The notes below the pieces were generated by a model that saw only the letters and a program-made list of their open reading frames with translations, made no database searches and was not told the origin of the DNA. A DNA stretch of 64,000 nt from Polytrichum commune (taxonomy: Eukaryota > Streptophyta > Polytrichopsida > Polytrichales > Polytrichaceae). Below, one piece after another: positions 7,001 through 37,938 of this stretch. Numbering within the stretch: the stretch's first letter is position 1; every line of letters begins with the position of its first letter. The DNA is taken from NCBI GenBank assembly GCA_950295325.1, contig OX485804.1, positions 55,168,429 to 55,232,428 of the forward strand. The letters run 5' to 3'. Position numbers and translations under genes: made by a program.

Positions 7001-9549
7001 CAGGAGGACTCCCAGTTGCGCTTACCAACTGCAGCAGCCTACAGGAAATACGTGTGACTTCCAACATTCTTCAAGGTCCCATCAACCCAAAATTCAGTAC
7101 AATGCCAAACCTGAAGGTTTTTGATATCCGGTATAATGCGTTCACTGGCAGCATCCCTCGCGAGTTTGGGAACTGCTCGACACTGACGAAGTTCTCGGTG
7201 ACATGGAACAATTTCACGGGAAATATACCAGCGGAATTTGGGAAACTCACCTCCCTACAAAGCCTAGAACTGCACGACAACTACCTCACGGGTTCGATCC
7301 CGACGGCTTTGGGGTCTTGCACAAATCTTCAGCATCTTGATATTGGTGCCAACAACCTCACAGGAGTGCTTCCAGTAGAACTCGTCAACTGTAGCCATCT
7401 GGAATTTATAGATGCGTCGTCAAACATGTTACACGGCACTATCGATCCTCGATTTGGGACGCTGAAGAACCTATCCCAGTTTTTGGTCATGTTTAATAAC
7501 CTCACTGGCAACATCCCTTCAAGCTTCGGGAACTGCTCAAAGCTGCAAAGCTTTTCAGTGAATAACAATCGTCTCACCGGGACGGTACCCGCTTCCTTCG
7601 CAAATTGCCCAGAGCTGCAAGGGTTTCTCATTGGATACAACCAAATATCCGGAATCCTTCCGCCGGAATTTGGGAGGTTGCAGAAGTTAACAGTCTTCTT
7701 TTTCCAGTATAATAACCTTTCGGGGCCTATTGACTGGCTCCAAAATTGTAGCACAATGTGGCTTGTTCATGGCGAGTACAACAACATTAGCGGACCGCTT
7801 CCTCCTCGGTTTGGTGCGAATTGCTCAACGATCGAACAATTTTACGTGAAGGGCAATAGTTTGTCCGGCCCGATTCCACCGTCCCTTGGAGATTGTCCGC
7901 TGATGACTAACATTGGATTCAGCAACAACCTCCTGAATGGCACCATACCCTCGTCACTTGGGAACCTCAAAAACATGATGTCATTCCAAGTGGACAACAA
8001 TTACCTCACAGGCACCATACCTGCGTCCCTCGGCAATTTCACGCAGGTTCAGTATATGTACTTCCACAACAATAACCTGGAGGGGACGATTCCAAAATCC
8101 CTTGCAAACTGCACGAATCTCATACAACTTCACGTGCACAATAACTCACTTCTTACTGGAACCATTCCGCCGGAGCTCGGCCGGTTGCAATTTCTGCAGA
8201 ACCTTGTGGGCTACAACACAAAGATGTATGGGGAAATTCCAGAGTCTCTTGGCAATTGCTCGTCGCTCGTGAATTTGATCTTCAACAACAACTCGCACAA
8301 CGGGAGCTTGCCCGCGAGTCTCGGCCGCTTGTACAACCTCCAGAAGCTGATTCTTTCACAGAACCAGCTGGAAGGATCGATCCCAACCACTCTCGGCCAA
8401 TGCTCGGCTCTCTTAACGATCGATTTGGCGACCAACAGACTGAGTGGCACGATCCCGCCAACTTTGTCGAACTGCACTGACCTGACGCAACTGTTGCTCG
8501 GGAGCAACAATTTGGTAGGCGAGTTCACCGTGGACCTCAGCAAAATGAAGAATTTGCAAAGCGTGTCGCTCACCAACAACTCCCTCACGGGTAACATCTC
8601 CAGCGTCTTCAGCCTCAGCTCCCAAAACGCCAACCCTAACATCTCCGTGATCGACATCAGCCGAAACAACTTCAGTGGCTCACTTCCCGTGAGCTTTAAT
8701 ACCTCGGTGCTTATGAACCTCGTGGTTCTATTGCTCGGGCATAACAGACTCAGCGGAGAGCTTCCGTCGTGGGTTCTTCAGGACCTACCCGCGATGCGAG
8801 TGCTCGACCTGTCGAACAACAACTTCACGGGCCCGCTTTCGGGCGACTTCGGGAACCTCACGGGGTTCATCAACGCGGACAACCAAACAAACTCCTCGAG
8901 CAGCCTGTCCGCCGAGACGCTCTACAACCAAAATATTGTCATCAATGTCAAGGACCAGCAGTTAACCTTCACGACTATTTTGGTGACCAGCACGTCCATG
9001 GACCTCTCAGTGAACCTCCTTAACGGAGACATCCCGACGAACATCGGGGATCTCGTCAGCATGCGCTACTTCAACTTATCGTCGAATTCGTTGAATGGCA
9101 GCATTCCCTCGAACATTGGCTCGATGTCCAGCCTACTATCTTTGGACTTATCGAGCAACCTCTTAGGCGGGGAGATTCCACAGTCGTTCAATAACCTGAC
9201 CCAGTTGTCTGTTCTCCGGCTCGCCAACAACAACCTCACGGGAAGGATTCCGAGTGGCACTCAAATACAGACGCAAAACACCAGCGCCTTTTTACCCGGA
9301 AACCCAGGACTTTGTGGTACACCGCTCAACAGGACATGTGTGAGTTCTGGAAATGTGACAACAATCCCGACTTCATCCAATGACTCCGAGTCATTCACAG
9401 ATATCTTCTCCATCCCAGGGTTTGTTCTAGGCACTGCCGTAGGCTTCATCTCCGTCTCCTCAGTCTTTCTTATTTGGCAACCTGCTCGCAACTTTCTCCA
9501 CATCAACCACCTAGAAACGCCCACTGGAGCATGGCAGCCACGCAAATAA
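4035..9549 (+). CDS. Leucine-rich-repeat receptor-like protein (no kinase), three exons
   Basis: Predicted 1088-residue cell-surface LRR protein of the plant RLP class. Exons by splice consensus and frame: 4035-4193 (phase 0), 5483-5804 (phase 1), 6764-9549. Exon 1 encodes a signal peptide (hydrophobic LALVLLLVLVGL core). Exon 2 encodes the N-terminal LRR cap, with the LLSFK..V..DP..L..W and C.W.GV.C pattern. Exon 3 encodes about 32 LRRs of the 24-residue L.G.IP..L...L..L.L..N plant type, interrupted after about repeat 29 by a non-LRR island (around YNQNIVINVKDQQLTFTT). A short C-terminal cap with NPGLCG..L follows, then one membrane helix (FVLGTAVGFISVSSVFLIW) and a short cytoplasmic tail ending WQPRK. 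Many N-x-S/T sites fit an extracellular protein. RLPs act in immune or developmental signalling with kinase co-receptors; the ligand is unknown. Intron 1 holds an AT microsatellite at about 4634-4658. An alternative in-frame acceptor at 6714-6715 would add 16 residues. Confidence 0.88.
6145..6370. repeat. Dispersed repeat copy in intron 2 of the LRR gene
   Basis: This intronic stretch shares blocks with 37965-38170 and especially 38515-38700: GACTTCCAAGTA, a CTTAGATGCTTG block, CTTCTTC..., GTGCAATCACAAGTTT, GATCCATGT/GAGCCATGT and CATGA followed by GATC. The order is conserved, so these are diverged copies of one repeat family rather than chance matches. No ends or target duplication could be defined. 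Confidence 0.45.
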
Positions 9550-11714
9550 TTAGAAGTTTGTGCAACTGAAATTATCGTAGAATGCCTACTTAACTTAATT
9601 ACATAGGCCAATTTTGTTGAGCTGACCAAATCATTCACTCGAGCTTTGTAACGTTAATTAAGACAACCCTCAGGCCCAGTGATTGCAAATAGGCCTACAT
9701 ACTTCTGACAGCGCCTCTAGTTTTCCAGCTCTTGGTAGGTAAGATTACTCTTCACTGCTTCTGGGCTTGCAAGAGTGTAAAGTTTGTATGTAAATTACAG
9801 TAGTTACATGGTCTCCAGTTGTAACATTATGATCAACATCCCAACGCATTTTAAATCGTGCTTCCAAGACTTTCCAATCTTCCAGAATTTGGAGAATCAT
9901 GTATAGGCATATAAGTATACAGCCAGTGTTTAGGTCCAATTCCACAAGCTGCAAAGCTACAGTTATTATGATTGGCCAGCCAATGCACATAACAACACAC
10001 TTCTTTATGTATGAAAATATGTTGTCAAAAGTGTGAAGGAACTTCTAGTCATATATATCTTTGGCTCTCGAATATGTCACAGTTGTATCGATTGTACTTG
10101 CTATTCTAGAATGTGAGCAATTGGTCTAAGGTCTATGGGCTTTATATGTGGACACTCTTCTTAATTAGACACCTACATTTTGAGTGGTACATGACAAGGG
10201 TTGTAGGTCATATGAAACATATACCAAAAATACTTGTGTCAGATAGTCTAGTGACCCCATAATCTAAAACTTTGAAAGACAATCTTTGGTATTTCCAAGG
10301 GCTATGTTCGGAGTAGTCAATTCCCAATTCAACCCAATAGTCAATTTGTCTATAAAGATGGAAATGCCCACAATTGGGCAACATATCTCAATGGCAATCC
10401 CTAACCTCCCCCACAAAATTATGGGGGAGGGATCTCTGCTGTGATTGGGGGCAAGGGCAGGGCCCGCGACCCACGACCCTCAAGCAATCTCCATAAATAC
10501 ATTTGAGGACCGCCTGAAATTTTTTACTTGTCCTACCCGACTTCGAAAAAAAGTTGCCCTTGCATTCTTGAAGGCCATCTTATCCACAAAACCCATAGTG
10601 AATGCTCGGTGCACCTCACCTTCAAGATCCAAAATCCAATTTATATGTTCACTTCCACTTAGTAAATGAGCAATTGATTGGGATTTCATTCCCGAGGTGA
10701 AACCGTCAATAAAGCATGTAAATAACTTGGAGGCTTATAATATTAAAAAATCCTTATTAGCATTAAACATTGAATTACTCTCAATCACTTTAAGCTACAT
10801 TTAATTAGTTTGATTGTGTATGAATATACTTGTGAATGGATGTTGGAAGAAGGTTGCAATATTTGTGCTCAATGAAAATTCTAAACAATATCTATTCTAA
10901 ACATTCAAACTAAATTTTTTTAAATGCTTAATTATGTTCAATCACACTTAATTAGTTTGAGTATTGTATGTGTATCTATTTGTGAAAGGAGTGGACTTTA
11001 ATTAAAATACTATAAAACAAATAAGCTAACATTCGCTCATTGTTTTTAGTACATTTTTAAAATGACAAAGTCCCTTTTAATGTAATGAAATTTTAGAGTC
11101 CATAAAGTCAAAAAGCTTATGGGACTAAAAATATACCAAACCGACTAATTCCCTAGAGTCTATAATCCCCCAAAGAATTTACAAGGAATGACAAATAATA
11201 TTGGCTTAACATGTAGCGAGGTGACACTATACCACGGTTTACAATTAGTATTAAGCAAGAGAATTAGATTGGTGACACTAAATTTATCATATTTAGTGTA
11301 CCACTTGTGGCTTCCACTTCCAAAAGTAGGTGTGCTCTTCGTATGACACCTGCACCCGTGCTTTCACGAACGGTGTATATGTTTGTTCTTGAAGCATGGT
11401 CGATGAAATCGCCATAGCTACGACTGCTGTTGCATTGCTCTGTTGCAATGCAACTAGACTTCGTTGCAGAGTGCTGATGCCTTTGTTAACTATGTTCATA
11501 ACTCTCCATCATCGAGGGTGAAATTCTGCACATGTCAATTGCTCTGAAAAGAATCATGCATAATCTGTTATTAGTATTCAAGACATTTGCTGCGAAGTGG
11601 TCAGAAGTCAGTGAAGCTTGGTCCGAGTGATATTGTTATTGTAATAGCTTGTCTAAGTCGACGTTCCTTTTGTAACTCTGCAAAAAGCCAAAAAGTAGAG
11701 TCCTCCCTCTGAGG
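9550..11714. other. Intergenic, AT-rich
   Basis: No supported gene. A short local duplication is visible: a TCAATCAC...TTAATTAGTTTGA block near 10777-10840 recurs near 10937-10993. The region separates the LRR gene from the ubiquitin-like/RING gene and presumably holds the terminator of one and the promoter of the other. Confidence 0.4.
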
Positions 11715-13053: not shown

Positions 13054-13192
13054 GTCAGTTACGATCTGTTGTGCACAGTGTGGATAAAGTAAGTCCAGAA
13101 AATTGTTCCTTAGTTTAGAGGCAATTCTTGAATTATCAGAGGTCTTTGAGTTTTGTTTTTCGATAAGATCTAGAGGATAATCGTTACTTTCA

Positions 13193-16108
13193 ATGGCGGA
13201 CACTAGTGCCATGTCAGACATCAGGGAGTCTAGCTCAGTCGATAGGTACAATGGCAGCAACTTTCACTTGTGGAAGATGCATTTGAGTTTCATCTTTCAA
13301 TCCCGTGATCTTTTTCCCATCGTCAATGGAACTTTCAAGAAAGCTGCTCTTAGTTCTGCTTCTGACAAACAGATATGGGAGAAAAAAGATAAGCAAGCCA
13401 TTGTGGCTATTCTGGCCACCCTGGATTCGCATCACCGGGCGGAGGTCATCAACTGCACCACTTCGCATGAAATGTGGACGCAGCTTCAAGCGTATCACGA
13501 CCAGCACTCCGATGAGTGCATCATTGCTCTCCAGGAGAAGTACTACGGGAGTAAGCTCGGTGCTAATGAATCTATCGCCGCTTTCGTTAGTTCGTTGAAG
13601 AAATTGGCGAAGCAGTTGACCGATCTTGGCCAACCAATTTCTGATCAGCAATTAATCAGTAAAATCAAGTGCGGTCTGCCCTCGGCATATGATCCACTTC
13701 TTCTCGCTTGGGACAGTGTTCCTGTTGCCGAGCAGACTCTTCTCTCCTTTCAAGCACGCCTCGTCAAGTTTCAACATAAACTTCGTGATCGAGCGGTGTT
13801 ACCTGAATCTCCGTTAGAGCAGGTATTTTTCGCTCAAGGTTCCTTACCGGCAGTATCGAAACCTTCTTCCACTCAAACTGTTGAGCAAAAGCACGAGCGT
13901 GCAGAGCGATTAGCCCGACAGAAGCGGCGCTCTCGGTGTTACAAGTGTGGCCGGCGTGGCCATTTCGGCAAGGAGTGTTCACAAGACAGTGATTCCTCCA
14001 CATCTGTCGATTCACCAAAGCGAAACAAGGCACATAAGGGGGATTCTCACCGTTCTTTTCGGAAATTCACCTCCAAGGGGAAGCGTAGTCACGCTCATGT
14101 TACTGCCAGTGCTGTGTCTACGTATTCAGATTCCTGTGAATATGTCTCCAGTGAGGCATATTGTGTACAATCACGTACACCAGCTTCTTCCAGTGGCGAT
14201 GATTTTTCCTGGATAGCTGATTCTGGCGCCACTGAACATATGTCTGACAAGCGGCAATGGTTCACTAATTTTCATCCGGTTCATGACAAGTGTTGGAGTG
14301 TCTCTATTGCCGATAATCATCTTCTATACGTGCGCGGTGTTGGTGATATTATTGTGCATGCTACTATCAACGGAGTAGTCAGGCCTTTCAAACTTCAGAA
14401 TGTGTTGTATGTGCCTCATCTTCGACGCAATCTGATCTCTGTCAGTCGGCTTACCGAAAAGCACGTTGCCATAATCCATATCCGCAATGAGTGCAAGATG
14501 CTAACTAACGACGGTGCTGGTCGACTACTCATGAGTGGCTCCAAGGCTGATGGCCTCTGGAAGCTTGATATCGTTGCGGTCACTCCCTCCAGCACAGCTA
14601 ATCTTGTTTCTTCGGAAAATTCTTCTCCGGGACAGTCTTCTCGATCTACACTCAGTCTGCATCGGTGGCACACTCGCCTTGGCCATGCGAGTTTCCGGAC
14701 GATACGAGATATGAGTAGCCGGGAAACTGTTTTTGGCCTTCCCTCTTTCAGTAAGGCAACTTCTCTTGTTTGTCCTGGTTGCGTTCACGGCAAGATTCAT
14801 CGTCGTCCTTTCCCTGTCAATCCTGAGCGGAAGCGTGTTGCTCTTCCAGGTCTTTTCTTCCACACGGATCTAGTTGGTCCGCTTCAAGTCCCTTCCCTCG
14901 GAGGTCATTCCTATTTTATGACTTTTAAAGACGATCACAGTAGCTTTCGGTTTGTCTTTCTCCTGCCAGATCGTAAAGGTGTTCTATCTGTCTTCAAGAG
15001 TCTCTATAAACTCTCCAAGAAAGAAACAGGTCGCTCTATGGTCAAACTTCGCACAGATAACGCGAAGGAATTTCTCTCCGGAGAATTTCAGGATTTCATT
15101 AAGCAGAAGGGCATTCGTCATGAACTCACGGCTCCTTACTCTCCAGAGCAGAATTTTGTGGTCGAAAGAGATAATCGAACAGTAGTCGAGTGTGTCAGGA
15201 GCATGATTTATCACAAATCTCTTCCTCTTGAATTCTGGGGGGAAGCTGTTAACACAGCCGTCTATGTTCTTAACCGCGTGGCTAGTCGTACTCTTAAGGG
15301 TGAAACTCCATTCACTAAGTGGTATGGCTACAAGCCAGATGTGAGTCATTTCAAAGAGTTTGGCAGTATTTGCTATGCTCATGTACCAAAGCAGGTTAGA
15401 GCAAAGCTTGACAGTAAAGCTCAGGAATGTCTATTCCTTGGTTACTGCTTGACTTCCAAGGCTTATCGCTTATGGTCGATTTCTAAACGAAAAATTCTGC
15501 ACTCTCGCGATGTAATTTTTGATGAGGACACCTCTCCTACTTCTTCGTCTTCTCCCATCATGACAACTTCTCCTCCTGATTATTCTCTTCTCTTTCCTGA
15601 TGACTCTCATGACTCACTGTCTTCTGTCTCTCCTGATTCATCTCGCAATATTCGCAGTGAATCTGTTTCAAGTGTTCGCAGTGAACCTGATTCAGTGGGA
15701 GTTGCCTCCCCTGATGTTCCTGTGTTGAAGCTGACTCCAGTTCGTTATCTGGCCGGCAATCAGTGGGAGTGTCTCCGCCAATCAATCGTGCTCTGTCTTT
15801 CTCCAGTAATCCTTCTCCGAGGTCTTCTGATACTACTCTCAATTCATCGTGTCTTCCTGATTCTTTTTCCCAGGGAGCTTCTGACTCTCCTCTTAGGTCA
15901 TCATCAGTGGCCATGTCTCCCTTTGAGTCAAGTGATCTTCTCAATCCAACTACTCGTACACGGCCTCTTTCTGAGTTTTATCTGGACAGCACAGCTGATT
16001 CTAGTCCTGCTGTTGCTTCAAAGTCCTTTGTGGCTGCAGCTAAAGAGAAGCCACCCCAACGTGTGTCTGTACTACCACCTGAGCCTCAAACATTCAATCA
16101 AGCTTTGA
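13193..16108 (+). CDS. Copia Gag-protease-integrase frame
   Basis: A 971-residue open frame starting at ATG 13193, about 150 bp after the LTR. The N-terminal part matches copia Gag (YNGSNFHLWKMHLSF region). It is followed by a CCHC zinc knuckle (CYKCGRRGHFGKEC), an aspartic protease site (WIADSGATEHM) and an integrase with an HHCC zinc motif (H..H...C..C before GKIHRRPF). The acidic triad lies in FFHTDLVGP, RTDNAKEF and VVERDNR. The frame then enters a Ser/Pro-rich linker. From roughly 15.72-15.87 kb the translation turns hydrophobic and unlike copia proteins, while the expected continuation lies in the overlapping frame of the next feature. Function in life is Gag capsid formation, polyprotein cleavage and integration. 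Confidence 0.9.
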   Translation: MADTSAMSDIRESSSVDRYNGSNFHLWKMHLSFIFQSRDLFPIVNGTFKKAALSSASDKQIWEKKDKQAIVAILATLDSHHRAEVINCTTSHEMWTQLQAYHDQHSDECIIALQEKYYGSKLGANESIAAFVSSLKKLAKQLTDLGQPISDQQLISKIKCGLPSAYDPLLLAWDSVPVAEQTLLSFQARLVKFQHKLRDRAVLPESPLEQVFFAQGSLPAVSKPSSTQTVEQKHERAERLARQKRRSRCYKCGRRGHFGKECSQDSDSSTSVDSPKRNKAHKGDSHRSFRKFTSKGKRSHAHVTASAVSTYSDSCEYVSSEAYCVQSRTPASSSGDDFSWIADSGATEHMSDKRQWFTNFHPVHDKCWSVSIADNHLLYVRGVGDIIVHATINGVVRPFKLQNVLYVPHLRRNLISVSRLTEKHVAIIHIRNECKMLTNDGAGRLLMSGSKADGLWKLDIVAVTPSSTANLVSSENSSPGQSSRSTLSLHRWHTRLGHASFRTIRDMSSRETVFGLPSFSKATSLVCPGCVHGKIHRRPFPVNPERKRVALPGLFFHTDLVGPLQVPSLGGHSYFMTFKDDHSSFRFVFLLPDRKGVLSVFKSLYKLSKKETGRSMVKLRTDNAKEFLSGEFQDFIKQKGIRHELTAPYSPEQNFVVERDNRTVVECVRSMIYHKSLPLEFWGEAVNTAVYVLNRVASRTLKGETPFTKWYGYKPDVSHFKEFGSICYAHVPKQVRAKLDSKAQECLFLGYCLTSKAYRLWSISKRKILHSRDVIFDEDTSPTSSSSPIMTTSPPDYSLLFPDDSHDSLSSVSPDSSRNIRSESVSSVRSEPDSVGVASPDVPVLKLTPVRYLAGNQWECLRQSIVLCLSPVILLRGLLILLSIHRVFLILFPRELLTLLLGHHQWPCLPLSQVIFSIQLLVHGLFLSFIWTAQLILVLLLLQSPLWLQLKRSHPNVCLYYHLSLKHSIKL

Positions 16109-17682
16109 AGTCCGAGTATAAAGCAGAGTGGGAGAAAGCTATGTTGGAGGAAATTAATTCGTTGCTCAAGAACGAAACATGGTCTCTGGAGACTCTACCA
16201 CCTGGGAGAACTACTGTCAAGAACAAGTGGGTTTTTCGCATTAAGGTCAAATCAAACGGCACTATTGAGCGTTTCAAAGCTCGTTTAGTTGCTAAAGGAT
16301 TTACTCAATCTCCTGGGGTTGATTACACCGAAACTTTTGCTCCCACCGCCCGAGCTGAGAGTATCAGAATTCTTTTGTCCATTGCGGGTGCTAATGGATT
16401 GATTCTTGTGCAGTTTGATATCAAAACTGCTTACCTCAATTCTACCATTCGTGAAGTCATTTTCATGGATTTACCTTTTGGTTTTGAAGAGTGGTTTCAC
16501 AAACATTTTCCTGCAAGTCGAGGCAAGGTGTGTCGAATTCTTAAAGGTCTATATGGGTTAAAGCAGTCTGCTCGCAGTTGGAATTCCACTTTTTCTGCTT
16601 TTCTAAAAGCATACGATCTTCTTCAGAGTGCCGCAGATCCTTGTGTCTTTTTCTCTACGACTACTCCTCGGCTTATTCTTGCTTTGTGGGTCGATGATGG
16701 TTTGGCAATGTGCCAAGATAAGGCTCTTCTATCCAAAATGATTGCTCATCTTCAAACTGCGTTTGAAGTTACTGTTGGCGATGCGGATGTGTATGTGGGG
16801 ATTCATATTACACGGGATATTCCTGCTCAGCGGATTTACATTGATCAACAACGATTCACAGAGACTATTCTTGCCAAATATGGATTTCAGGATGCTCATA
16901 CTGTGTCGACTCCCTGTGATCCTCATGTTTCTTTGAGTCATTCACCTGCAGGGGACACTGATACTCCTGTTCCTCAATTTCCATACCAAGAAATTGTTGG
17001 ATCCCTGCTCTATTTGGCTACTCATTCGCGGCCAGATATTGCTCATGCAGTCTCTGTGGTTGCGCAGTATGCTAGCAATTTTCGGGAAATTCATTGTACT
17101 GCCGTCAAGAGGATCCTCAAGTATTTGCGGGGTACTACCGATTTTGCTCTCTGCTACTCGCGGGATTCTACCGATCCTCATCTGCTTACAGCTTTCACGG
17201 ACGCTGATTATGCTGGTGACATTAATGACCGCAAGAGTAGGAGTGGCAGTCTTCTTTTTCTCAACAATGGGCCTGTCATTTGGCTCAGTCGCAAGCAACC
17301 GTGTACTGCTTCCTCCACGACAGAGTCGGAGTATGTCGCTGCTTCTCTCACAAGCAAGGAAGTTGTGTGGGCTAGGCGTCTTCTTGGCGACATTGGTTTT
17401 TCTCAACCCCAGCCTACTCCACTCTACTCTGACAACCAATCTGCTATACGGCTTGTTCAAAATCCCGAGTTTCACAAGAGGACCAAACACATTGATGTGG
17501 TATTCCATCTTATTCGTGAATTTCAAACTCGTGGTGACATCTCTGTCTCCTATGTTCCTACCCGCCTTCAGTTGGCAGATATACTTACCAAAGCTCTTAC
17601 TCCAGATGTTTTTCATAAGCTGCGCTCCGCACTCAATCTTACCAAGAAAGATTTTCATCAAGTGGGAGAATTTGGCTGTTAG
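15763..17682 (+). CDS. Copia reverse transcriptase-RNase H frame
   Basis: Open frame in the -1 register relative to the Gag-integrase frame and open back to about 15715, just after a TGA. No ATG is needed if it is read through by frameshifting; the listed start is a GTG. It encodes the copia RT (NKWVFRIKVKSNG, RLVAKGF, FDIKTAYLNS, LKGLYGLKQ and the catalytic WVDD in place of the usual YVDD). The RNase H follows, with acidic residues in DADYAGD, TESEYVA and YSDNQSA, and ends near LADILTKAL. The catalytic residues look intact. A polyprotein would need a -1 shift between integrase and RT, or the shift reflects a recent mutation or sequence error. Confidence 0.9.
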   Translation: MGVSPPINRALSFSSNPSPRSSDTTLNSSCLPDSFSQGASDSPLRSSSVAMSPFESSDLLNPTTRTRPLSEFYLDSTADSSPAVASKSFVAAAKEKPPQRVSVLPPEPQTFNQALKSEYKAEWEKAMLEEINSLLKNETWSLETLPPGRTTVKNKWVFRIKVKSNGTIERFKARLVAKGFTQSPGVDYTETFAPTARAESIRILLSIAGANGLILVQFDIKTAYLNSTIREVIFMDLPFGFEEWFHKHFPASRGKVCRILKGLYGLKQSARSWNSTFSAFLKAYDLLQSAADPCVFFSTTTPRLILALWVDDGLAMCQDKALLSKMIAHLQTAFEVTVGDADVYVGIHITRDIPAQRIYIDQQRFTETILAKYGFQDAHTVSTPCDPHVSLSHSPAGDTDTPVPQFPYQEIVGSLLYLATHSRPDIAHAVSVVAQYASNFREIHCTAVKRILKYLRGTTDFALCYSRDSTDPHLLTAFTDADYAGDINDRKSRSGSLLFLNNGPVIWLSRKQPCTASSTTESEYVAASLTSKEVVWARRLLGDIGFSQPQPTPLYSDNQSAIRLVQNPEFHKRTKHIDVVFHLIREFQTRGDISVSYVPTRLQLADILTKALTPDVFHKLRSALNLTKKDFHQVGEFGC

Positions 17683-28360: not shown

Positions 28361-28744
28361 TTATTGTATGTGGACTCGAACACTTGTTCACTTTGAGTAT
28401 AGTGACAAAACGGTGCAAGTAGCCTCAAGGTCTTTGTAAAGCAAGAGTTACTTCTACGCATATTGTTCACTTTGATAGTGATAACATAAGCCCATACATG
28501 CTAAAGTCATGTAATTTGTAGCAAAACACTTTTTAATAAACAACCTTTATTCACACATAAGAACAATAATTAAAAAATACACCATGATTTTATGCCACTC
28601 TGTGTACACACTCACAACTAGAGAGAGAGAAAAGTTGTAGGATTAGAGAAGGAAAAAAAACACAAATTTTATTGGTGGTTCGTTCATTGAACCATGTGGA
28701 TTACACAAAGAAAGTTTCACTTGTGGATGAATTTAAAAAGCGAC

Positions 28745-28791
28745 GCTATTTTGCGAGCAGTGAGCAGTAAGCGGTGAGCGGTGAGCGATAA
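28745..28791 (+). repeat. Left terminal inverted repeat with five 7-bp repeats
   Basis: Starts GCTATTTTGC and continues as five tandem heptads of consensus GAGCRGT (one starts with A instead of G, the last ends in AT), then AA. It is the inverted match of 37875-37921, with four differences over 47 positions by my count. Such arrays are candidate transposase-binding sites. Confidence 0.85.
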
Positions 28792-29447
28792 GTTTTTCTT
28801 TTTTTAAGTTAAAATAATAGTTTAATGTGCAGGGTATATTAAAAAAATCATTGTTTTGCAAATATATTTCCAATTATAGTAAATTTGGGGACCTATGCCC
28901 GTGGAAAATTCCTCCACAGTGATCGTTGCAAAGTTGTTTTTGGGATGTTTTTAGGGTTTAGGGAGTCGAAATCAATATTGACAAACATTGTGGAGTATTT
29001 CTATGCAGCAAAATTAAATTACATTGGCATCTTTTGAGATCCGTGAGATTGAAGATGAATTCAAGAAAAGTGGAGATATCAGACACCTAAGGTTTCTAGA
29101 CTATCAGAAAGAAAATTAAATGAAGCTTCGAGGTCAACAAAAACGTTGATACATCAAATACCTCGAAGTGGCCCTTTTAATCTCACTAGTTCATGATTAA
29201 AACAGAGGCTGCATACATACGTTTCTCTGAGAAGACAATGAACTCAACATCTCTATACAAGATTTTGTATAATGAAGGAAACAATAATTGATGAGTATTA
29301 AAACTAAACCATTCAAATTCAATACTGTAGCGCCTTTAAAGAGTGACGGTATAAAAATACTGCACTTGGTAGTGGCCCTTTCCGTCTCACTACCTCAATT
29401 TCATTGATGTGATTGAAATGAAATTACAAGAGTATTTCATCCAAAGC

Positions 29448-32435
29448 CTAAGAGGTTGTCTGGGTCAACAATCCACTCTGAAGGATTTGCTTGACCTCAT
29501 TAAAGCTAAAACTAGCACCATGAATAAAAGTATCAGAATCAGGATCAAGTCCACAAATTATCGTAAACACATAGTATAGGTGCTTACAATTGGCCCACTG
29601 ACCGCACTTTCCAAGAGCCTTGGTTGCCATTTCCTTGAAATTGTGACAAGTGCACGCCGGAAGTTGAGAAATAGTTAAGTGGTACTGGTGGATATTGGGA
29701 GGAGAACCAGAATCCAAGGTAACAATACAGCCAAGAACTGGGGCATGCACCATGCTAATGTTGCGAATGCAAGCTTTTAACGTGAGAGCAGAGGCGCAGT
29801 TGTTGGCGTGACGTGTGGAAGGGGCCTTACTCATGCGACGGATATTCTTCCCGGACCTGCGCTTGGGGAACTCATCCGGAGATGCCGGAGTAACATACGA
29901 AGTCAAGTCCACGTGGGAGAGGTTGTCTTGGAACAATCGTCTTGGAGAGATTTCTTGTCGTTGAGGAAGGCGAAATCCAGCAGTCTCCAATTTGAGAATC
30001 TCCTTGCGGGTAAGGTTTGTCCCCATCTTGACAGGCCAAGTCTCAGGGACTTCAGGCCTTGATATAACCCACTTCCTGCGAGTTCCTTTAACACACCTTT
30101 CAATATCATCGTTACAAAAGAAGAATTGCAAGAGTTCTTGCTTATTCTTTCGGTAATTGGTCATCATCCCGGTGTACGTTGGCGCAGTGGTACTCTTCCC
30201 GTCTTGAACAATACGGGCCACACACTTCTTCTTTGTCATCACTTGTATAGCAAAGCAAGCCTTTGCAGACGTCTTAGGAAGACGTGCGATGTGCCACTTA
30301 CTTTCGTCACAAGCTGATTCTTGAACTGCTGTAACATGCTGCAAAGGAGCAAGTGGGGTGACATCACTTACTCGAGTCTTGCCATTCGATTGTTGCGGCG
30401 CAATTGGAGTTGCAAACGTTTTAGGAGATTCTGAATCAACGGTTGGTGAGGCCGTTTGAGAGTTTTTGATGGAAGACCGCGTTTGCACTCGGGGACGAGA
30501 GATGGAGATCTTGTCAGGTCGGTGAGAGTCAAGTTCCGAACCTGGAGGAAGGTCAGCCTTCCGTTTCAACGATAGGAAGACTTCTTCACCTTCTAAGTGT
30601 GGCGTGCTGATGCAAAACTCTTGTGCTCCGGGCATTCTAGTCATTGCTTTGTGAAGGGACTCGGTGTTGCCGGTAATCTCCGAAGAATGTTGTGCGGCAT
30701 GTAACTTCAGCTCTTCCTTGGACGGGCCAGTACCAGCACGATCTCCTTTTAAGTACTGGTAGTACGAGACACATTGCATAAATGCGCGCACGTAGTCATC
30801 AACTGTTGCAACGTATGGATCCTTACCACGGTGGTCGGATTGTTGGAGCCACTTATTGTGCACGGTCTCGGCCAAATTGCAAGAAGACATTTCAGCCAAC
30901 TCAACTTCGTTCAAGTCCTATGGAGAAGGAGTTTAGAAAGAATCGATTAGGAAACATGTAGGAAACATGTAGGAGACGATTGACGATTGCTTTATCAATG
31001 GATGGGTAGACGTTTAATGAGCGAATAACTTACCAATTGCATGAAGCCACCCCATTGGCAGTAGCGGAAATGCCAAAAAGCAAGCCAGAGGTCGAGTCGG
31101 GATATGACATCCTCAGATGCGGTACCGGACGAAAGCCACCACGCGCGAATGGCAAGGTAGCGCATTTCAGCTTCAGAAATGGTCTTGGCGTTTTTGTATT
31201 GCTTGCAAAGCAATCGGTGCTGATCTTGAAGGTCGAGTCTAATGTAGGTCTTTGTGTGCTTCTCGAGGGACTGAGTCTAGTGAAAGAGGCACGTTCTCTC
31301 CTTGTTTTCCATGGGCATAGATGCATCTCTGTTTCCGTAGACAATACGGATAGCATTCCAATTAGCTTGAGCGCTATCTGCCATAAACCCTTTGAAGTTT
31401 GGTTGAGAAACGTTGTGGCGAGCCATAATAGCGTTGAGGTTTTTCTAAACCACAATTTGAGCAGCGGTATCCTCGGACTGCATGTCGCAGACGGCAATAG
31501 TCATTACTCGACAAAATGTGGCATCATAAACATGGCACGCCATTGTAGTCCAACTTTGCACACGCTTAACATGGTCAAACATGAGCCAAGCGTTTTCGAG
31601 GTCTCCACCGGCTTGCATCCGTTTCACGAGGTCGACTCCACTACCTGGTCCTACCTCAGACATTTGGAACACAAAGACCTTGTCAGTTTCCGCTCCTTGG
31701 CCTAGAAACTTGTTCTCCTGGACATGAGGCCAGTTGCTTGACCCACGAAGTTTGGTGATGCTATCCATAACCCCAAATCTACGGATGTATTTGAAACCCG
31801 ATACAGTATTATGGATGCTAGGCGAAGTAAGGTGCTTACAACGATCAAACAAAGGCAGGAGGTCATCTATAGAGAGGAATTTTTTGTTGTGAACCCTCAG
31901 GCGCTAGGAGCATGTCTCCAACTAAGTCTTTGCTAGCTTCCAAAACTAAAGCGGAGTTGGTAGCTATAGGAGTGCTTTGAATTTGTTCACTCGGGAAGCT
32001 GGTAGTATGCTCAATGGAGTCGTGATAATCACCAGTTTTGACCGGATGGGCATGGATTCCGAAGTGAATACAAGCCCGAGTCATAGATTCTGATCCAACT
32101 ACATAATAAATCCTAGCCGGACACAAGGCAACACAATTCGGCGAAACCTTACAAATGGAACAAACGATGGTTGAATCCTTGGGAGGCACGGTACCACACT
32201 CAAAGGGCAAAGATGAGTTGCCCTCCCACTCCGTTTCATTAATAGGTGTGGTGCGGTGTACTCGAGTAAGGAACTCACAGTCAACATTATCGCACCGTAA
32301 ATGACCTAAACAGGAAGAGGTACGAAAAGTGAGACCAAAATCGTTAGAGATGTTGGACGTGATAGTTCGGGTCCAGGCGTGGCCATCGATAGTAGGGCGG
32401 GCAGGTGCTAGTGAGAGGGTTAGGCAAGCGGTAAC
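29448..32435 (-). pseudogene. Mutator-like DDE transposase with SWIM zinc finger
   Basis: Two exons are recognisable on the - strand: about 32435-31034 and 30917-29448. The intron 31033-30918 has a GTAAGT donor and CCATAG acceptor. Order: an N-terminal Cys-rich region (SSCLGHLRCDNVDCEFL, then CSICKVSPNCVALC), TRACIHFGIHAHPVKTGD, FDRCKHLTSPSI, and the catalytic core with acidic residues in MACHVYDATF and FKGFMADSAQANW, followed by KERTCLFH and AEMSSCNLAETVHNKW. The C-terminal SWIM finger reads CTC...CKH (29577-29654). Layout and motifs fit Mutator-superfamily transposases, which cut and paste DNA through an RNase H-like DDE core. Defects: a 1-nt frameshift in a T6/A6 run at 31880-31885, and TAG stops at 31445-31447 and 31277-31279, both where Trp is expected. 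The start codon was not found; an upstream exon is possible. Confidence 0.75.
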
Positions 32436-32689
32436 CCTAGAACATATCTAGCAGCACCCTAAACATTTCCAAGCTTTTGAGAGGGTGCGCAAGCTGTGGC
32501 AGATGAAGCCTGCGCCGACAGCCATGGACACCAGGGAGGTCACAGTGGGCAATCAAAGAGGTAGTACATCGAGACAGCTTGGAGAGTCGTCGTCGACGGA
32601 GGTGCGCAACCTCGAGGGCGACATCGCAGGTGAGCCTTGAATCCTGAAACCCTAATAAAACTTTGCGGGTTTCTTCATGCTTCTAACCT

Positions 32690-34166
32690 TTAGAAAACTT
32701 GTGCTTGTGCCTGTGGGTTGCAATCAGATTGCTTGTGGGTTGCTCTCTGTGGGTTGCTCTCTGTGGGTTGCAATCAAATTGCTTTTGGGTCGCTCTTAAT
32801 GTGCTTTCAGGTCGCTTTTATTGTGCTCTCAGGTTGCTTAGATCTCTCTTAAGGTGCTCTCATGTTGCTTAGATTTCTCTTAATGTGCTATCAGGCTGCT
32901 CTTCATGTGCTCTCAGGTCGCTTAGATTTAAAAGTTGGAATTTTCATTGGGTGCCTGAGGCACCCCGCCGGTGCCGGCTAGGGGCTCTGGGCTGGACCTT
33001 GAGGGATCTTGGTTGCTCCCAGGTGGCTCTTAAGGTGCTCTCAGGTGGCTTAGATTTCTCTTAGGGTGCTCCTAGGTATCTCTTAATGTGCTCTCAGGTT
33101 GCTTAGATTTCTCTTAAGGTGCTCTCAGGTTGCTTAGATTTAAAAGTTGGAATTTTCATTGGGTGCCTGAGGCACCCCGCCGGTGCCGGCTAGGGGCTTT
33201 TGGCTGGACCCTGAGGGATCCTGGTTGCTCCTAGGTGGCTCTTAAGGTGCTCTTAGGTTGCTTAGATTTCTCTTAAGGTGCTCTTAGGTTGCTTAGATTT
33301 AAAAGTTGGAATTTTCATTGGGTGCCTGAGGCACCCCGCCAGTGCCGGCTAGGGGCTCTTGGCTGGACCCTGAGGGATCCTGGTTGCTCCCAGGTGGCTC
33401 TTAAGGTGCTCTCAAGTGGCTTAGATTTCTCTTAAGGTGCTCTGAGGTCGCTCTTATTGTGCTCTCAGGTTGCTTAGATTTCTCTTAATGTGCTCTCAGG
33501 TTGCTCTTAATGTGCTCTCAGGTTGCTCTTAATGTGCTCTCAGGTCGCTTAGATTTAAAAGTTGGAATTTTCATTGGGTGCCTGAGGCACCCCGCCGGTG
33601 CCGGCTAGGGGCTATTGGCTGGACCCTGAGGGATCCCGGTTGCTCCCAGGTGGCTCTTAAGGTGCTCTCAGGTGGCTTAGATTTCTCTTAAGGTGCTCTC
33701 ATGTATCTCTTAATGTGCTCTCAGGTGGCTTAGATTTCTCTTAAGGTGCTCTCAGGTATCTCTTAATGTGCTCTCAGGTTGCTTAGATTTCTCTTGATGT
33801 GCTCTCAGGTTGCTTAGATTTCTCTTAATGTGCTCTCAGGTCGTTCTTAATGTGCTCTTAGGTTGCTTAGATTTCTCTTAATGTGCTCTCAGGTCGCTCT
33901 TAATGTGCTTTAAGGTTGCTTAGATTTCTCTTAATGTGCTCTCAGGTCGCTCTTCATGTGCTCTCAGGTTGCTTAGATTTCTCTTAATGTGCTCTCAGGT
34001 CGCTCTTAAGGTGCTCTCAGGTTGCTTAGTGCTAAAAGGTGGAATTTTCATTGGATTGCTCTAAGGTTGCTCATGTTGCTCTCTTGTTTCTCTCAGGTTG
34101 CTCGGTTGTTGCTCTCAAGTTGCTTGTAGCTTTCAGGTGCTGAGGGCTGAGGGCTGAGGGCTGTGG
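32690..34166. repeat. Complex minisatellite with embedded double-hairpin blocks
   Basis: Dense array of units of roughly 18-31 bp built from GTGCTCTCAGGTTGCTTAG and ATTTCTCTTAA variants. Interspersed are four copies of a longer block starting AAAAGTTGGAATTTTCATT (about 32930, 33142, 33300 and 33558). Each contains GGGTGCC-TGA-GGCACCC, a perfect 7-bp-stem hairpin, and next to it GCCGG-TG-CCGGC, a second hairpin; the third copy has one change (GCCAG). The right edge has a GAGGGCT repeat at about 34140-34162. It occupies the intergenic region between the divergent transposase and accessory genes of the transposon. Confidence 0.85.
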
Positions 34167-34859
34167 GTTGCTCTCAGCTATCATGCGAGACCGTATTCTT
34201 GAAATTCTCGAGAAACAGGTCAGCCAATTTCTTAATAAATGTTTACATTCTTCTCACATGAGCTGAAGGTGGCATTATGTTGAATGTGTTTCAGTTGAAG
34301 CGAGTATTATGAGTCCAGGAGATGGTGGAGATGGTGGGGAAGGTGCATTCCACATTGCTTTCAGATTTGGGGCTTATTTATTCATTCCAATTTCATGTGG
34401 TTTGGTGTTGCATTCCAATTTCGTGAATGAACCTTGTCGATTATGAGGTGCGTAAATTGTTAGGGGTCATTCACCATGTAATCAAATGCCTCTCTTCTTC
34501 TGATATTTTAGAAATCGAGTTAATTTTGTTTGCACACAATTCTATTATGACTTCCAGTGACTGATATGACATTGTGCGCTTCCTCAGCTTCTTCGGGTGA
34601 GCCTGCCGGTACGTTCTGTGTCGGTCACCAGTCCAAACCTGGCTGTCCTCTGTTCATTTTGCAGTTTGCTATTAACTCATTAGTGGAATTTTCAAAATGA
34701 ACATTCACTCACGTTTTTGGCTCACGTATTGCTTTCTTAACTGCTGATATACATGTCACATTGTAATCAATCAGTAAATGATTTATTGAACGATTATCTT
34801 GAGGTAGAATTCTCATGCAATATCTCATGCAATATCTGCTGAATTTGCCTTCATTTTCA

Positions 34860-37666
34860 GACAATCCAAGAGATGCTCGCTCGAAGCTCCATACCATGGT
34901 CTCTAATGAGATTCCCAGCACCAAATCTAGGATTGAGGGACTTAGATTTCAACCGAGGAACAAGTCCAAGATCTTCATTCCTCTTTGTCGAATGGTTTGT
35001 CTTCCCGTGGTCCGTCCCTTCCTTAAGAATGATGTCCGAAAGTTGGCTTCGCATTTCCAGAAGAACGGTTACATGGAAGGTAATGGTGTTTTTTATATTG
35101 CCCTGGATGACAATGAAGGCAAAACTTTAGACGTTTCCGAAGAGATCATTTCCACTTGGAGTCAACATTGGGTGACAGTGAACAACGAATTTGAGGCCAT
35201 GCTAGCTGCCGATCCAGTTCTCCAAGTCTTTTGTGGGAAGATGTTCCATGTTTGGGATGGCAACCACTGCATCCAAGTTTGGATGCCAATTATCAACAAT
35301 GACCACCTGGATGACATTTCTTGACATTATACGGTCGAGAGTATTATTCTCGTTGTGAATGGGAATGTTGTATCCATGCTCACTGCCTTACACGAGGTCA
35401 ACTGGTATGTTCTTATTGCAATCACAGGCTCTCTTGATTCCATCTCATTTTTTTCATGGTACCTCATCTCTAATTCCATCTTGATTTTCTGCCACCTAGG
35501 AGAAATGAAAATTCACATGTGGTTGCAAACCTTGTGCATCGGCTCTACCGCACTCAGAGTCTTGCCAAACAACCAGTGGAGTTCTTCAAGTCCTTGGTGT
35601 CTCAAGATGAAGTTCGAGTTGCGGAGACAAAACAAAAGAATCCTAAAACCAAGACTTGGTTCACCCTTACAACTGCATCGCTCACCTCCATACTCTACCA
35701 GGTTCAATTATTTTGATAGTCTTCCTATGGTTTCATTCCCACTTTTCTCTTCCTCCATATTTATATGTTATACGCATTACTAATATCCTTATTCCTTGCT
35801 TTTCAAATGTGTCAGCAAGAAATTGGAGTGGTTGCAGCATCTGCAGAGCGGAAATTTTATGACCAATATCCAAACCCTAAGGACTGGACATCTCAACGCG
35901 TTGATGACATCGTTGGCAAGGCGGTTACACGTGCCAAGGTGCATTTCAAAAGTGAGTTGAAGAAGATATTACCAATTGATGATCCTCAGAACACTCCTGC
36001 TTTTCTTGCCGAAGTAAAGACTCATTATGAGTGTCGTGATGACGATGTTGAGATGAAGTTAGAGAAGTTGTGGATGTTGGCTGTGTCTGTCATGGATCCT
36101 TCCATGAAGGTACTTTGGCTTGAGCGCTGGAATCAGCCTACAAGCCTTCGGGTGCAACTGAAATTCCCCAAGCAAGGTTTCAACGATGACATCTTTTACA
36201 CTTGGCTGAATAAGGCAACATGGTGGGCTCAAATATGTGATTCTCCACCTGCCCTCTTTGTTGAGTTATCAAAAATTGTTGTTGAACTTTCATCTTCATT
36301 GCTAGTCCATTGTAAATTTGTTGTTTTCTGTGTTCATAACTTCTCTGTCTTGCTATGCAGTTGGCAGTGGAAGCACAAAAACTTCTCGATGGTGTCCTGC
36401 GTGAACAAAAGGCCACCATCAACTACCAACCTGATGGCCGGGATCCAATTCCCACCATTTTTTATTATATTGAGCAAATTCGCATTTCATTATGGGACAC
36501 GACATTCTTCCGCGAATTCGCAGTGGAGAAAGGAGTGAACAAGAACAACACTATCGACAAGCAGTATTTGTTCAAGCCAACATTACACCGTGTCCTGTAC
36601 CGGTACTTCAAATATGTCCTCTTCCCCTCCAAGGCTATCTCTAGATCCCCTCCCTTTGTTGTTAATTTCTTGGAGATAGATAGTGAGGATTTCATGCTCA
36701 CTGAGGGGATCATGAAATCATGGGATTTTGTGCACTGGGAGCGATGTGGTTGGTATCTTGACTGCCCAGCTTCGAAAGCTCCTTCGTTTGACATCGCTCT
36801 TCGGGATTCTATCCAACCACCTTCCCTTCGAACTAGGACTCCCTCGGATACCGTCGACACTCCGCTTGAGGTGCTTGCCAGTCAACGGCCGGCCTCAAAA
36901 TCCAAGAGGCAACCGAGGCATAAGAAGGCTCCCGTTTCTTATCAGGTTCAGAGGGCCACTTCCCCGGTTGTGGCGCCGCCCCTCTTCTCTGCACCAGATG
37001 CTGCACATGCTTCAAGTGCATCTAGACTTCCTGCATCACCACCGAGTCCTTCAGTACTTCCAGCAGAGCCAATTACGAAGCGCCAGAAAGTTGATGTCCC
37101 GGAGTCCAGTACGGCCACCACGTTCTTGTCTCCCCCTAAGCGTCATCCCATGAAGATGAAGATTGTTGCATTGTCAAGCGCATATACTTCTCAGCAACTT
37201 CTTGTGAATGATTCTTTTGTTCGAATTGTGGAGGAGAAGTTCCACCTCCAAATGCTTTGACTTTCTCTACTCCGGGCGACCTGATTGATGATGACGAGTC
37301 CATTCCAGATGCCCCTTTGCACGATATATGTGAATAAGTCCACGCCTTCGTTGGTTGACATTGTTTTCTATTTATCTCTTAATTGTAATCCATCCTTTGT
37401 CCATCTCTAAATCTTGCTCTGAACATGACAGTTTGACAAATCCAAGGAGACCGCTACGAACTCCACCTTCAACTTGGTACTTTCCGTCGCCGCCCCCAAG
37501 TTCTCGTGGCTTACATGTATATGCTGAAGCCATGGCCTTGGCGTATGCCCATGGTAGCTCTGGGAATTCGACATCCTTCTTCACTCCTAAGAATCATGTT
37601 GACCCTCGAGTTCTACGCTACTTTGATTTAGAAGCAGTGTCGAGCTCTCTATGTAGTAGTGATTGA
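34860..37666 (+). pseudogene. Transposon accessory gene with VWDGNH (ParB/sulfiredoxin-like?) motif
   Basis: Multi-exon frame divergent from the transposase. Supported exons: from about 34861 (after TTTTCAG) to 35404, 35500-35701, from 35816 to near 36250-36290, from 36361 (after TATGCAG) onward, and probably a last exon of about 37433-37666. Joins 35404/35500 (phase 2) and 35701/35816 (phase 0) keep the frame. The first part holds FHVWDGNHCIQVWMP (35250-35285). This is reminiscent of the DGNHR/DGQHR-type active-site turn of ParB/Srx-fold proteins, with Cys where Arg would be expected. The later part is rich in Pro and Ser, with basic clusters (KSKRQPRHKK and ITKRQKV) that look like nuclear localisation signals. 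Defects: TGA at 35322-35324 where Trp is expected, and a probable frameshift near 37235. Upstream exons (perhaps from ATG 34185) are unresolved. I do not recognise the family. Confidence 0.55.
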
Positions 37667-37874
37667 AGTAATGACGACCTTCTTGATCATACAAAGTATC
37701 TTGAGCTCCCAGAAATTGTCACGGATATAGGCCCCTTTAATAAAAATTGTGTTCTACAACTTTCAAGTTTTCAGTGAAAACCGTGGTCATAGAGCTCAAA
37801 AGTTTTCAAATTCTTGCTTTATTCCTGATTATAGGGCTTTATTTTCAATAAAAAATATCTAAAAACTGTAGAAA

Positions 37875-37921
37875 TTATCGCTCACCGCTCAACGCTCACT
37901 GCTCACTGCTCACAGAATAGC
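37875..37921 (-). repeat. Right terminal inverted repeat with five 7-bp repeats
   Basis: Read on the - strand it begins GCTATTCTGT and continues as five heptads of consensus GAGCRGT (the third is GAGCGTT), then AATT. It pairs with 28745-28791. The outer seven to nine bases (AAGCGAC left, AAGAGGAAT right) also agree loosely, which puts the element ends beside the AATTTAAA direct repeats. Confidence 0.85.
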
Positions 37922-37938
37922 ATTCCTCTTAATTTAAA

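What the first reader, a model, noticed from the sequence alone, without database searches (positions are those of the whole stretch)
28738..37930. A 9.2-kb DNA transposon with two divergent genes, heptad-array ends and a central minisatellite
Inverted ends built from 7-bp repeats enclose a Mutator-like transposase with SWIM finger on one strand and an unfamiliar multi-exon protein on the other. Their shared intergenic region is a hairpin-bearing minisatellite. Mutator elements with a second gene are known (for example MuDR and VANDAL elements), but I know of none with this accessory protein or these ends. This is the best candidate in the window for an undescribed system.
Basis: partly seen in the sequence, partly recalled or inferred. 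Interest (0 to 1): 0.85.

Follow-up and report, generated by a model that had tools for sequence, protein, structure and literature searches.

The report
Jumping gene carrying a methyltransferase-like partner
This is a real, repeatedly mobilised transposon that carries, next to its transposase, a bacterial-style DNA-methyltransferase-like protein which seems to have lost its catalytic residue and may instead bind the element's own repeated palindromes, perhaps to escape silencing.

Summary
Confirmed, with corrections. The window copy (28738-37928) is one of about 25 copies of a DNA transposon in the host genome. Ends and 10-bp target duplications are defined: 18 of 19 copies match at 9 or 10 of 10 bases. 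It is a defective deletion derivative; 13 of those 18 copies span 12-18 kb, one 63 kb, and both genes are longer in full copies. The 'unfamiliar' second protein carries a prokaryote-type N6A/N4C DNA-methyltransferase domain (PDB DpnA E 3.9e-7; hhalign to eight phage/plasmid enzymes 98.8%). In 15 of 15 sequences read, from about eight families, the catalytic aromatic residue of motif IV is replaced by an acidic one. Outside this family, transposase and accessory gene lie divergently in 23 of 27 neighbouring pairs (about 2.5 pairs of any kind expected by chance). The central minisatellite differs between subfamilies but keeps one palindromic core, rare elsewhere in 408 Mb; other families have other palindromes. 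My reading is a self-recognising DNA-binding (probably anti-silencing) partner, VANC-like in logic but unrelated in origin. Prior art: ParB-methyltransferase accessory genes are reported in algal transposons. ParB homology was tested here and not supported.

The parts
28728..28737 (.). left target-site duplication TGAATTTAAA (9/10 match to the right one)
   Evidence: 18 of 19 copies have 9-10 of 10 matching flanks at these boundaries
28738..28758 (+). left terminal inverted repeat
28760..28787 (+). four heptads GTGAGCA/GTAAGCG/GTGAGCG/GTGAGCG
29448..30917 (-). transposase C-terminal exon, 489-codon open frame, with SWIM-like CxC...CxH motif (by eye)
   Evidence: Pfam SWIM subthreshold in a nested relative only
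30995..32389 (-). remainder of transposase catalytic exon; carries TAG codons and a frame change
   Evidence: aligned to an 890-codon open frame in copy E11
32389..32390 (.). junction where the window copy lacks about 2.2 kb present in other copies
   Evidence: 13 of 20 fetched copies break here, 2 run through as the window does, 5 are interrupted before it
32734..34167 (.). central intergenic minisatellite
32949..32978 (.). hairpin GGGTGCCTGAGGCACCC plus core GCCGGTGCCGGC (copy 1)
33161..33190 (.). hairpin plus core (copy 2)
33320..33349 (.). hairpin plus core with one mismatch (copy 3)
33576..33605 (.). hairpin plus core (copy 4)
34861..35405 (+). accessory gene, exon with the GNHR domain (one in-frame TGA); boundaries inferred by eye
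35500..35701 (+). accessory gene, next exon (boundaries inferred by eye)
35816..36235 (+). accessory gene, middle exon (approximate 3' end)
36361..37238 (+). accessory gene, large exon up to the deletion junction (approximate)
37238..37240 (.). junction where about 1 kb with the methyltransferase-like exons is missing
37879..37913 (-). five right-end heptads
37908..37928 (-). right terminal inverted repeat
37929..37938 (.). right target-site duplication TTAATTTAAA

Best explanation
The feature is an internally deleted, probably non-autonomous copy of a two-gene cut-and-paste transposon, probably Mutator-like. SHOWN: shared ends, 10-bp target duplications, many dispersed copies, divergent gene order kept across families, a methyltransferase fold in the accessory protein, replacement of its catalytic aromatic residue in every sequence read, an excess of silent over replacement changes between diverged relatives, and palindromes that differ by family in non-coding arrays. 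INFERRED: the accessory protein no longer methylates DNA but uses its fold, with the N-terminal GNHR domain, to bind the palindromic cores in its own family's array; the occupied array keeps the shared promoter region between the two genes free of host silencing. Deleted copies such as this one keep ends and array and are moved and protected in trans. Arrays and binding protein co-diverge by family, as in Arabidopsis VANDAL/VANC.
For: Ends and duplications. Deletions relative to other copies. Methyltransferase fold: PDB profile hits DpnA 3.9e-7, CcrM 4.1e-5; PF01555 in 7 of 8 members, best 2.8e-9 (for E11 itself only 0.029, below the cut-off); NCBIfam CcrM in 3 of 8 members, best 1.1e-6; hhalign 98.8%. 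Catalytic Tyr replaced by D or E in 15 of 15 family sequences (8, 7); 8 of 8 aligned phage/plasmid enzymes have D[PIL]PY. dN/dS 0.11-0.12 for two accessory exons of F55 against F56. Divergent pairing 23 of 27. Longer core pattern 35 hits, all in element loci; 12-base core 139 against 8 for the control. Palindromes in other families' arrays; 1903 sites of one of them, control 0. VANC precedent.
Against: No binding, expression or methylation data. Shuffles do not make the core of subfamily B's 117-bp unit unusual (113 of 200 reach it) and are weak for the window's own unit (10 of 200) and B's 116-bp unit (17 of 200). The arrays tested were chosen after seeing them. Not all arrays lie between the genes: two are in introns and one listed palindrome site lies on the 3' side of an accessory hit. 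The palindrome could be a transcription-factor, origin or recombination signal. Within family E, dN/dS is 0.22-0.81 on few differences, and the only methyltransferase-exon comparison between families has saturated dS. A ParB domain, which would suit array binding, was not supported.
Confidence: 0.5

Rival explanations
1. The accessory protein is an active DNA amino-methyltransferase that marks its own element with 6mA or 4mC, and the acidic motif IV is a modified but working active site.
For: SAM motifs I and II are recognisable. The Ectocarpus authors predict 4mC or 6mA activity and self-modification for the Sola1-1_Ec32 protein. Replacement changes are fewer than silent ones between diverged relatives.
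Against: The aromatic residue that stacks on the flipped base (recalled from the enzymology of this class) is replaced in 15 of 15 family sequences and present in 8 of 8 aligned phage/plasmid enzymes. The HPTxKP-type motif is also changed, to RGPxxK.
Confidence: 0.2
2. The accessory protein is a transposition helper (MURB-like in role) that acts at the ends; the minisatellite is a by-product of replication slippage or recombination.
For: An antisense second ORF is listed for several MULE groups (table in PMC6446971, passages). The heptad arrays at both ends are plausible binding sites.
Against: Arrays of several families have a strong palindrome of their own, and in subfamilies A and B the same core sits in different repeat units, which slippage alone does not predict.
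Confidence: 0.22
3. The transposase belongs to another superfamily, and 'Mutator-like' is a misnomer.
For: No Pfam MULE hit for three transposase pieces of the window copy, for the two E11 pieces or for the nested relative.
Against: 10-bp duplications fit MULEs (8-11 bp in the table passages of PMC6446971). SWIM-like finger at the expected place in a nested relative (E 0.076). CxxH motif after the second D-like block, read by eye.
Confidence: 0.15

Closest known systems
Sola1-1_Ec32 of Ectocarpus (PMC12477816; passages read), with green and red algal relatives cited there (not read)
   Same: A large DNA transposon with an accessory gene on the strand opposite the transposase, encoding an N4C/N6A-type DNA-methyltransferase domain.
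   Different: Sola1 in a brown alga; described as ParB-like plus methyltransferase, predicted to make 4mC or 6mA. Here: 10-bp duplications, SWIM-like transposase, acidic motif IV, ParB not confirmed, over a thousand first-look candidates in the genome for each of two exons (150 scored each), palindromic arrays. The proteins were not compared.
VANDAL elements with VANC (PMC5735166 passages, PMC10398659 abstract)
   Same: Elements whose accessory protein binds short motifs arranged as rapidly evolving tandem repeats in their own non-coding DNA.
   Different: VANC homology was not tested. The motifs here are palindromes, the protein is a methyltransferase relative, and binding and anti-silencing are inferred only.
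MuDR and other two-gene MULEs (PMC6446971 table passages)
   Same: Transposase with SWIM finger, in several groups an antisense second ORF, 9-10 bp duplications.
   Different: The word methyltransferase occurs 0 times in that paper's main text; the table does list SET domains (histone methyltransferase, recalled) in one oomycete group. No DNA methyltransferase is listed in the passages seen.
Retroelements with DNA methyltransferases (PMC5890265 passages)
   Same: Transposable elements that captured a DNA methyltransferase.
   Different: LINE, DIRS and Gypsy retroelements; C5-cytosine enzymes, or Dam-type adenine enzymes in DIRS.

Membership tests
Mutator-like elements | target duplication of about 8-11 bp | tested here: met
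   10 bp; 13 of 19 copies identical, 5 at 9/10, 1 without match
Mutator-like elements | terminal inverted repeats | tested here: met
   21-bp imperfect repeats shared by copies
Mutator-like elements | MULE DDE transposase domain | tested here: inconclusive
   no Pfam hit; AlphaFold2 model of the window stretch uninformative, pLDDT 36
Mutator-like elements | SWIM zinc finger | tested here: inconclusive
   PF04434 E 0.076 below cut-off in the nested relative; none in E11 or the window exon; residues present by eye
beta-class DNA amino-methyltransferases (PF01555) | domain homology over motifs IV to II | tested here: met
beta-class DNA amino-methyltransferases (PF01555) | catalytic motif IV with aromatic last residue | tested here: not met
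   D or E there in 15 of 15 sequences; whole motif [DE][YIL]P[DE] in 11 of 15, four variants
ParB_N (PF02195) | profile or fold match of the N-terminal domain | tested here: not met
   no Pfam or PDB ParB match; hhalign against 3 plasmid proteins 0.05%; fold model too poor to use. The profile had 7 sequences and one misread row
algal ParB-methyltransferase transposon accessory class | divergent gene with methyltransferase domain in a DNA transposon | tested here: met
   the algal sequences themselves were not compared
VANDAL/VANC | VANC protein homology | not tested
   no VANC sequence was compared
VANDAL/VANC | protein binds arrayed motifs and causes hypomethylation | not testable with these tools
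   needs ChIP, EMSA, methylome

The most novel reading that the evidence does not exclude
A large clade of transposons in this genome has turned a captured prokaryotic DNA methyltransferase into a catalytically dead, sequence-specific reader of palindromes. Each family has its own reader and its own array of palindromic sites in its non-coding DNA, a parS- or VANC-like self-recognition system that arose independently and protects only its own kind from silencing.
Probability: 0.35. Interest if true: 0.85.

Novelty: new variant of a known kind. Interest (0 to 1): 0.7.

Why it matters
If true, it is a second, unrelated route to sequence-specific anti-silencing by transposons, outside the VANDAL family, and it would show how a bacterial DNA-modifying enzyme becomes a pure DNA-binding module. 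With several families in one genome, each with its own protein and palindrome, the co-evolution of reader and site can be tested directly by swapping pairs. It also gives a testable function for the methyltransferase-type accessory genes that are now being noticed in algal transposons.

Tried and rejected
ParB: I read the N-terminal GNHR..AW domain as ParB-like by eye. Pfam, PDB profile and hhalign searches and a single-sequence AlphaFold2 model gave no support, so I do not claim it, although the Ectocarpus paper assigns ParB to its protein. Other weak, unfollowed hits: UPF0179 0.086, Dicty_REP 0.058, MSL3 chromo-like 0.011 in one member, several PHROGs at 0.046 or worse. Fold of the window's transposase stretch: uninformative. 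One related family (transposase at C1:14000126) showed no accessory gene in the 13.5 kb read, about 12.5 kb of it upstream; a retroelement and long arrays lie there and more array sites lie beyond, so absence is not shown. The genome search for the palindrome of the family nested in copy E05 did not complete. An empty-site test was not possible: no second haplotype is held. Early idea that some copies carry unrelated central DNA: withdrawn, because those stretches read N.

A typing error: in E11 the accessory exon has an in-frame stop just before MVCLP. The conserved motifs lie elsewhere, and one search used a query without it; other copies have longer open frames there (323-326 aa).

Paper searches for a published methyltransferase-bearing MULE; only PMC12477816 was to the point. 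The papers listed there that I do not cite by passages or abstract were seen as listings only. Refs 50 and 51 of the Ectocarpus paper were not read.
Full report
WHAT IS THERE. The window lies at C2:55168429-55232428 of an unnamed 408-Mb genome with seven large contigs. Open frames in the window look plant-type, but this is by eye and was not tested. The first 563 bases of the element match 23 places nearly full length at 95-100% identity including the window, one partial copy at 99% and one 51-base end. Only 40 of 186 candidates were scored, so this is a lower bound. The last 626 bases match 23 places over at least 592 bases at 94-100%, with 40 of 138 candidates scored. I number copies E01 (window) to E25.

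ENDS. In 19 copies with both ends read, 13 have identical 10-base flanks, 5 have 9 of 10 (the window among them), and E05 has no match, so its two ends may come from different insertions. Among the 18 matched copies the distance between ends is 12-18 kb in 13, and otherwise 9.2 (window), 10.6 (E03), 22.8 (E04), 24.0 (E08) and 62.7 kb (E12). The last has a perfect duplication. E04 and E12 carry pieces of related elements inside. Heptads sit inside the terminal repeats and vary from 2 to 5 on the left and 1 to 7 on the right.

THE WINDOW COPY IS A DELETION DERIVATIVE. Of 20 other copies fetched from the left end, 13 align to window base 32389 and then break off or continue in other sequence, 2 (E02, E03) run through as the window does, and 5 are interrupted earlier. 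In E11 (14.0 kb) the transposase exon is a single 890-codon frame across that point. On the right, E11, E07 and E13 hold about 1 kb of extra exons that the window and E03 lack. Six copies (E01-E04, E24, E25) have the first long accessory exon in the list but no hit for the later exon in the list; each list holds the 150 scored hits. E11 is not a perfect copy either: its accessory exon has an in-frame stop. In several copies part of the centre is withheld and reads N, so their central anatomy is unknown.

THE ACCESSORY PROTEIN. Seven diverged relatives (F50-F56; F55 and F56 are close to each other) keep the exon order at 41-65% identity to E11 in the N-terminal exon; not all exons were found in each, partly because the stretches read end too soon. 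The C-terminal part is a prokaryote-type DNA amino-methyltransferase. Single members hit PF01555 in 7 of 8 cases, best E 2.8e-9, E11 only 0.029. The profile hits DpnA (3.9e-7), CcrM (4.1e-5, aligned from motif IV) and RsrI (0.005) in the PDB, and it aligns to eight phage and plasmid enzymes with hhalign probability 98.8%. Single-sequence searches with E11 were weak or empty. In the aligned enzymes motif IV reads D[PIL]PY in 8 of 8. In the 8 sequences of alignment A1 and 7 further ones the aromatic residue is D or E in 15 of 15; the whole motif is [DE][YIL]P[DE] in 11, with four variants, one of them the broken copy L075. These 15 fall in about eight families by my grouping. The SAM motifs are recognisable but altered. 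F55 against F56 gives dN/dS 0.12 and 0.11 for two exons; E11 against F54 gives 0.095 in a methyltransferase exon with saturated dS; within family E it is 0.22-0.81 on few changes. The N-terminal domain has an invariant KMFxxW[DE]GNHRxxAW motif in 7 of 7. I took it for ParB-like, but the tests did not support that.

TWO GENES, ONE SYSTEM. The transposase region has 150 scored hits of 1747 candidates at 72-100% identity. The accessory methyltransferase exon has 150 of 1080, and the N-terminal exon 150 of 1141. Outside family E (131 accessory and 130 transposase hits), 27 accessory hits have a transposase hit within 30 kb: 23 divergent, 1 tandem, 3 convergent. Random placement gives 2.5 in all, at most 7 in 200 trials. 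The lists are capped, so the 104 unpaired accessory hits are not evidence of single genes, nor of pairs.

THE MINISATELLITE. Subfamily A (window, E02, E03, E13) and subfamily B (E11 and others) have different repeat units between the genes, yet the units share a core around GCCGGTGCCGGC. Pattern CACCCCNGCCGGTGCCGGC, which covers only the form with a spacer base, occurs 35 times in 408 Mb, reversed control 0. All 35 fall in loci of this family, on the element's strand (assignment by my reading of the coordinates). GCCGGTGCCGGC occurs 139 times, control 8; of the 100 listed, 90 are in element loci and 10 elsewhere (by my reading). Of the 20 fetched copies, 11 contain CCGGTGCCGG in the stretch read and 9 show none, some because of withheld or interrupted centres. 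Arrays in nested or related families hold other palindromes: GTGTCTCGGGACCGAGACAC, GGTGCCGTTAACGGCACC, GAGGCCTCGGATCCGAGGCCTC and one built on TTTGGGTCGAACGACCCAAA (0 or 1 of 200 shuffles as good). Two of these arrays lie in introns of a transposase and an accessory gene. Seven other arrays in the same loci show nothing unusual (33 or more of 200). The window's own unit reaches 10 of 200, E03's 2, and B's two main units 113 and 17. The palindrome GAGGCCTCGGATCCGAGGCCTC has 1903 exact sites, control 0. Of the 50 sites listed, all on C1, 29 form a run starting 3.2 kb upstream of a transposase at C1:2249073, 18 lie on the upstream side of the one at C1:14000126, one lies 1.7 kb from an accessory hit at C1:13841187 but on its 3' side, and two have no listed neighbour.

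HOW IT PROBABLY WORKS. The transposase cuts at the terminal repeats and heptads (inferred). The accessory protein, a methyltransferase relative that has lost the base-stacking residue but seems to be kept by selection, most likely binds DNA. The best candidate site is the palindrome repeated in the non-coding array, in family E between the two genes, where binding could keep both promoters open. Arabidopsis VANC proteins give the precedent: they bind short motifs in rapidly changing tandem repeats of their own elements, introns included, and remove silencing marks (PMC5735166 passages; PMC10398659 abstract). Every binding and silencing step here is inferred.

KNOWN OR NEW. A gene opposite the transposase with ParB-like and N4C/N6A methyltransferase domains is described in the brown-algal element Sola1-1_Ec32, with relatives said to exist in green and red algae, and is proposed to modify its own element (PMC12477816 passages). 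DNA methyltransferases in retroelements are known (PMC5890265 passages). What I did not find in print (searches, in an open-access library only) is such a gene in a Mutator-like element, the loss of the catalytic residue, or the family-specific palindromic arrays. I therefore call it a new variant of a known kind.

Noticed in passing
window 13181-17682 (+): Copia-type retrotransposon: gag, integrase and reverse transcriptase motifs in two overlapping long open frames (by eye).
   Followed up: no
window 6649-9549 (+): 966-codon open frame of leucine-rich repeats with a C-terminal hydrophobic stretch, like a plant receptor-like protein (by eye).
   Followed up: no
window 60257-61171 (+): Open frame resembling plant beta-lactamase-like proteins (by eye).
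   Followed up: no
L011 about 5756-9694 in element orientation (inside copy E04): A second, diverged transposase gene (42-47% identical), nested, whose intron holds a minisatellite with inverted repeat TTTGGGTCGAACGACCCAAA.
   Followed up: partly
G000 C1:2249073, C1:14000126, C1:34534009 and others: A related transposase family with 766-aa open frames and the same score at 10 places, which suggests a very recent expansion.
   Followed up: partly
L020 1782-3586 (copy E13): A 1.8-kb insertion in the transposase flanked by an 8-bp overlap of the alignment, perhaps another transposon.
   Followed up: no
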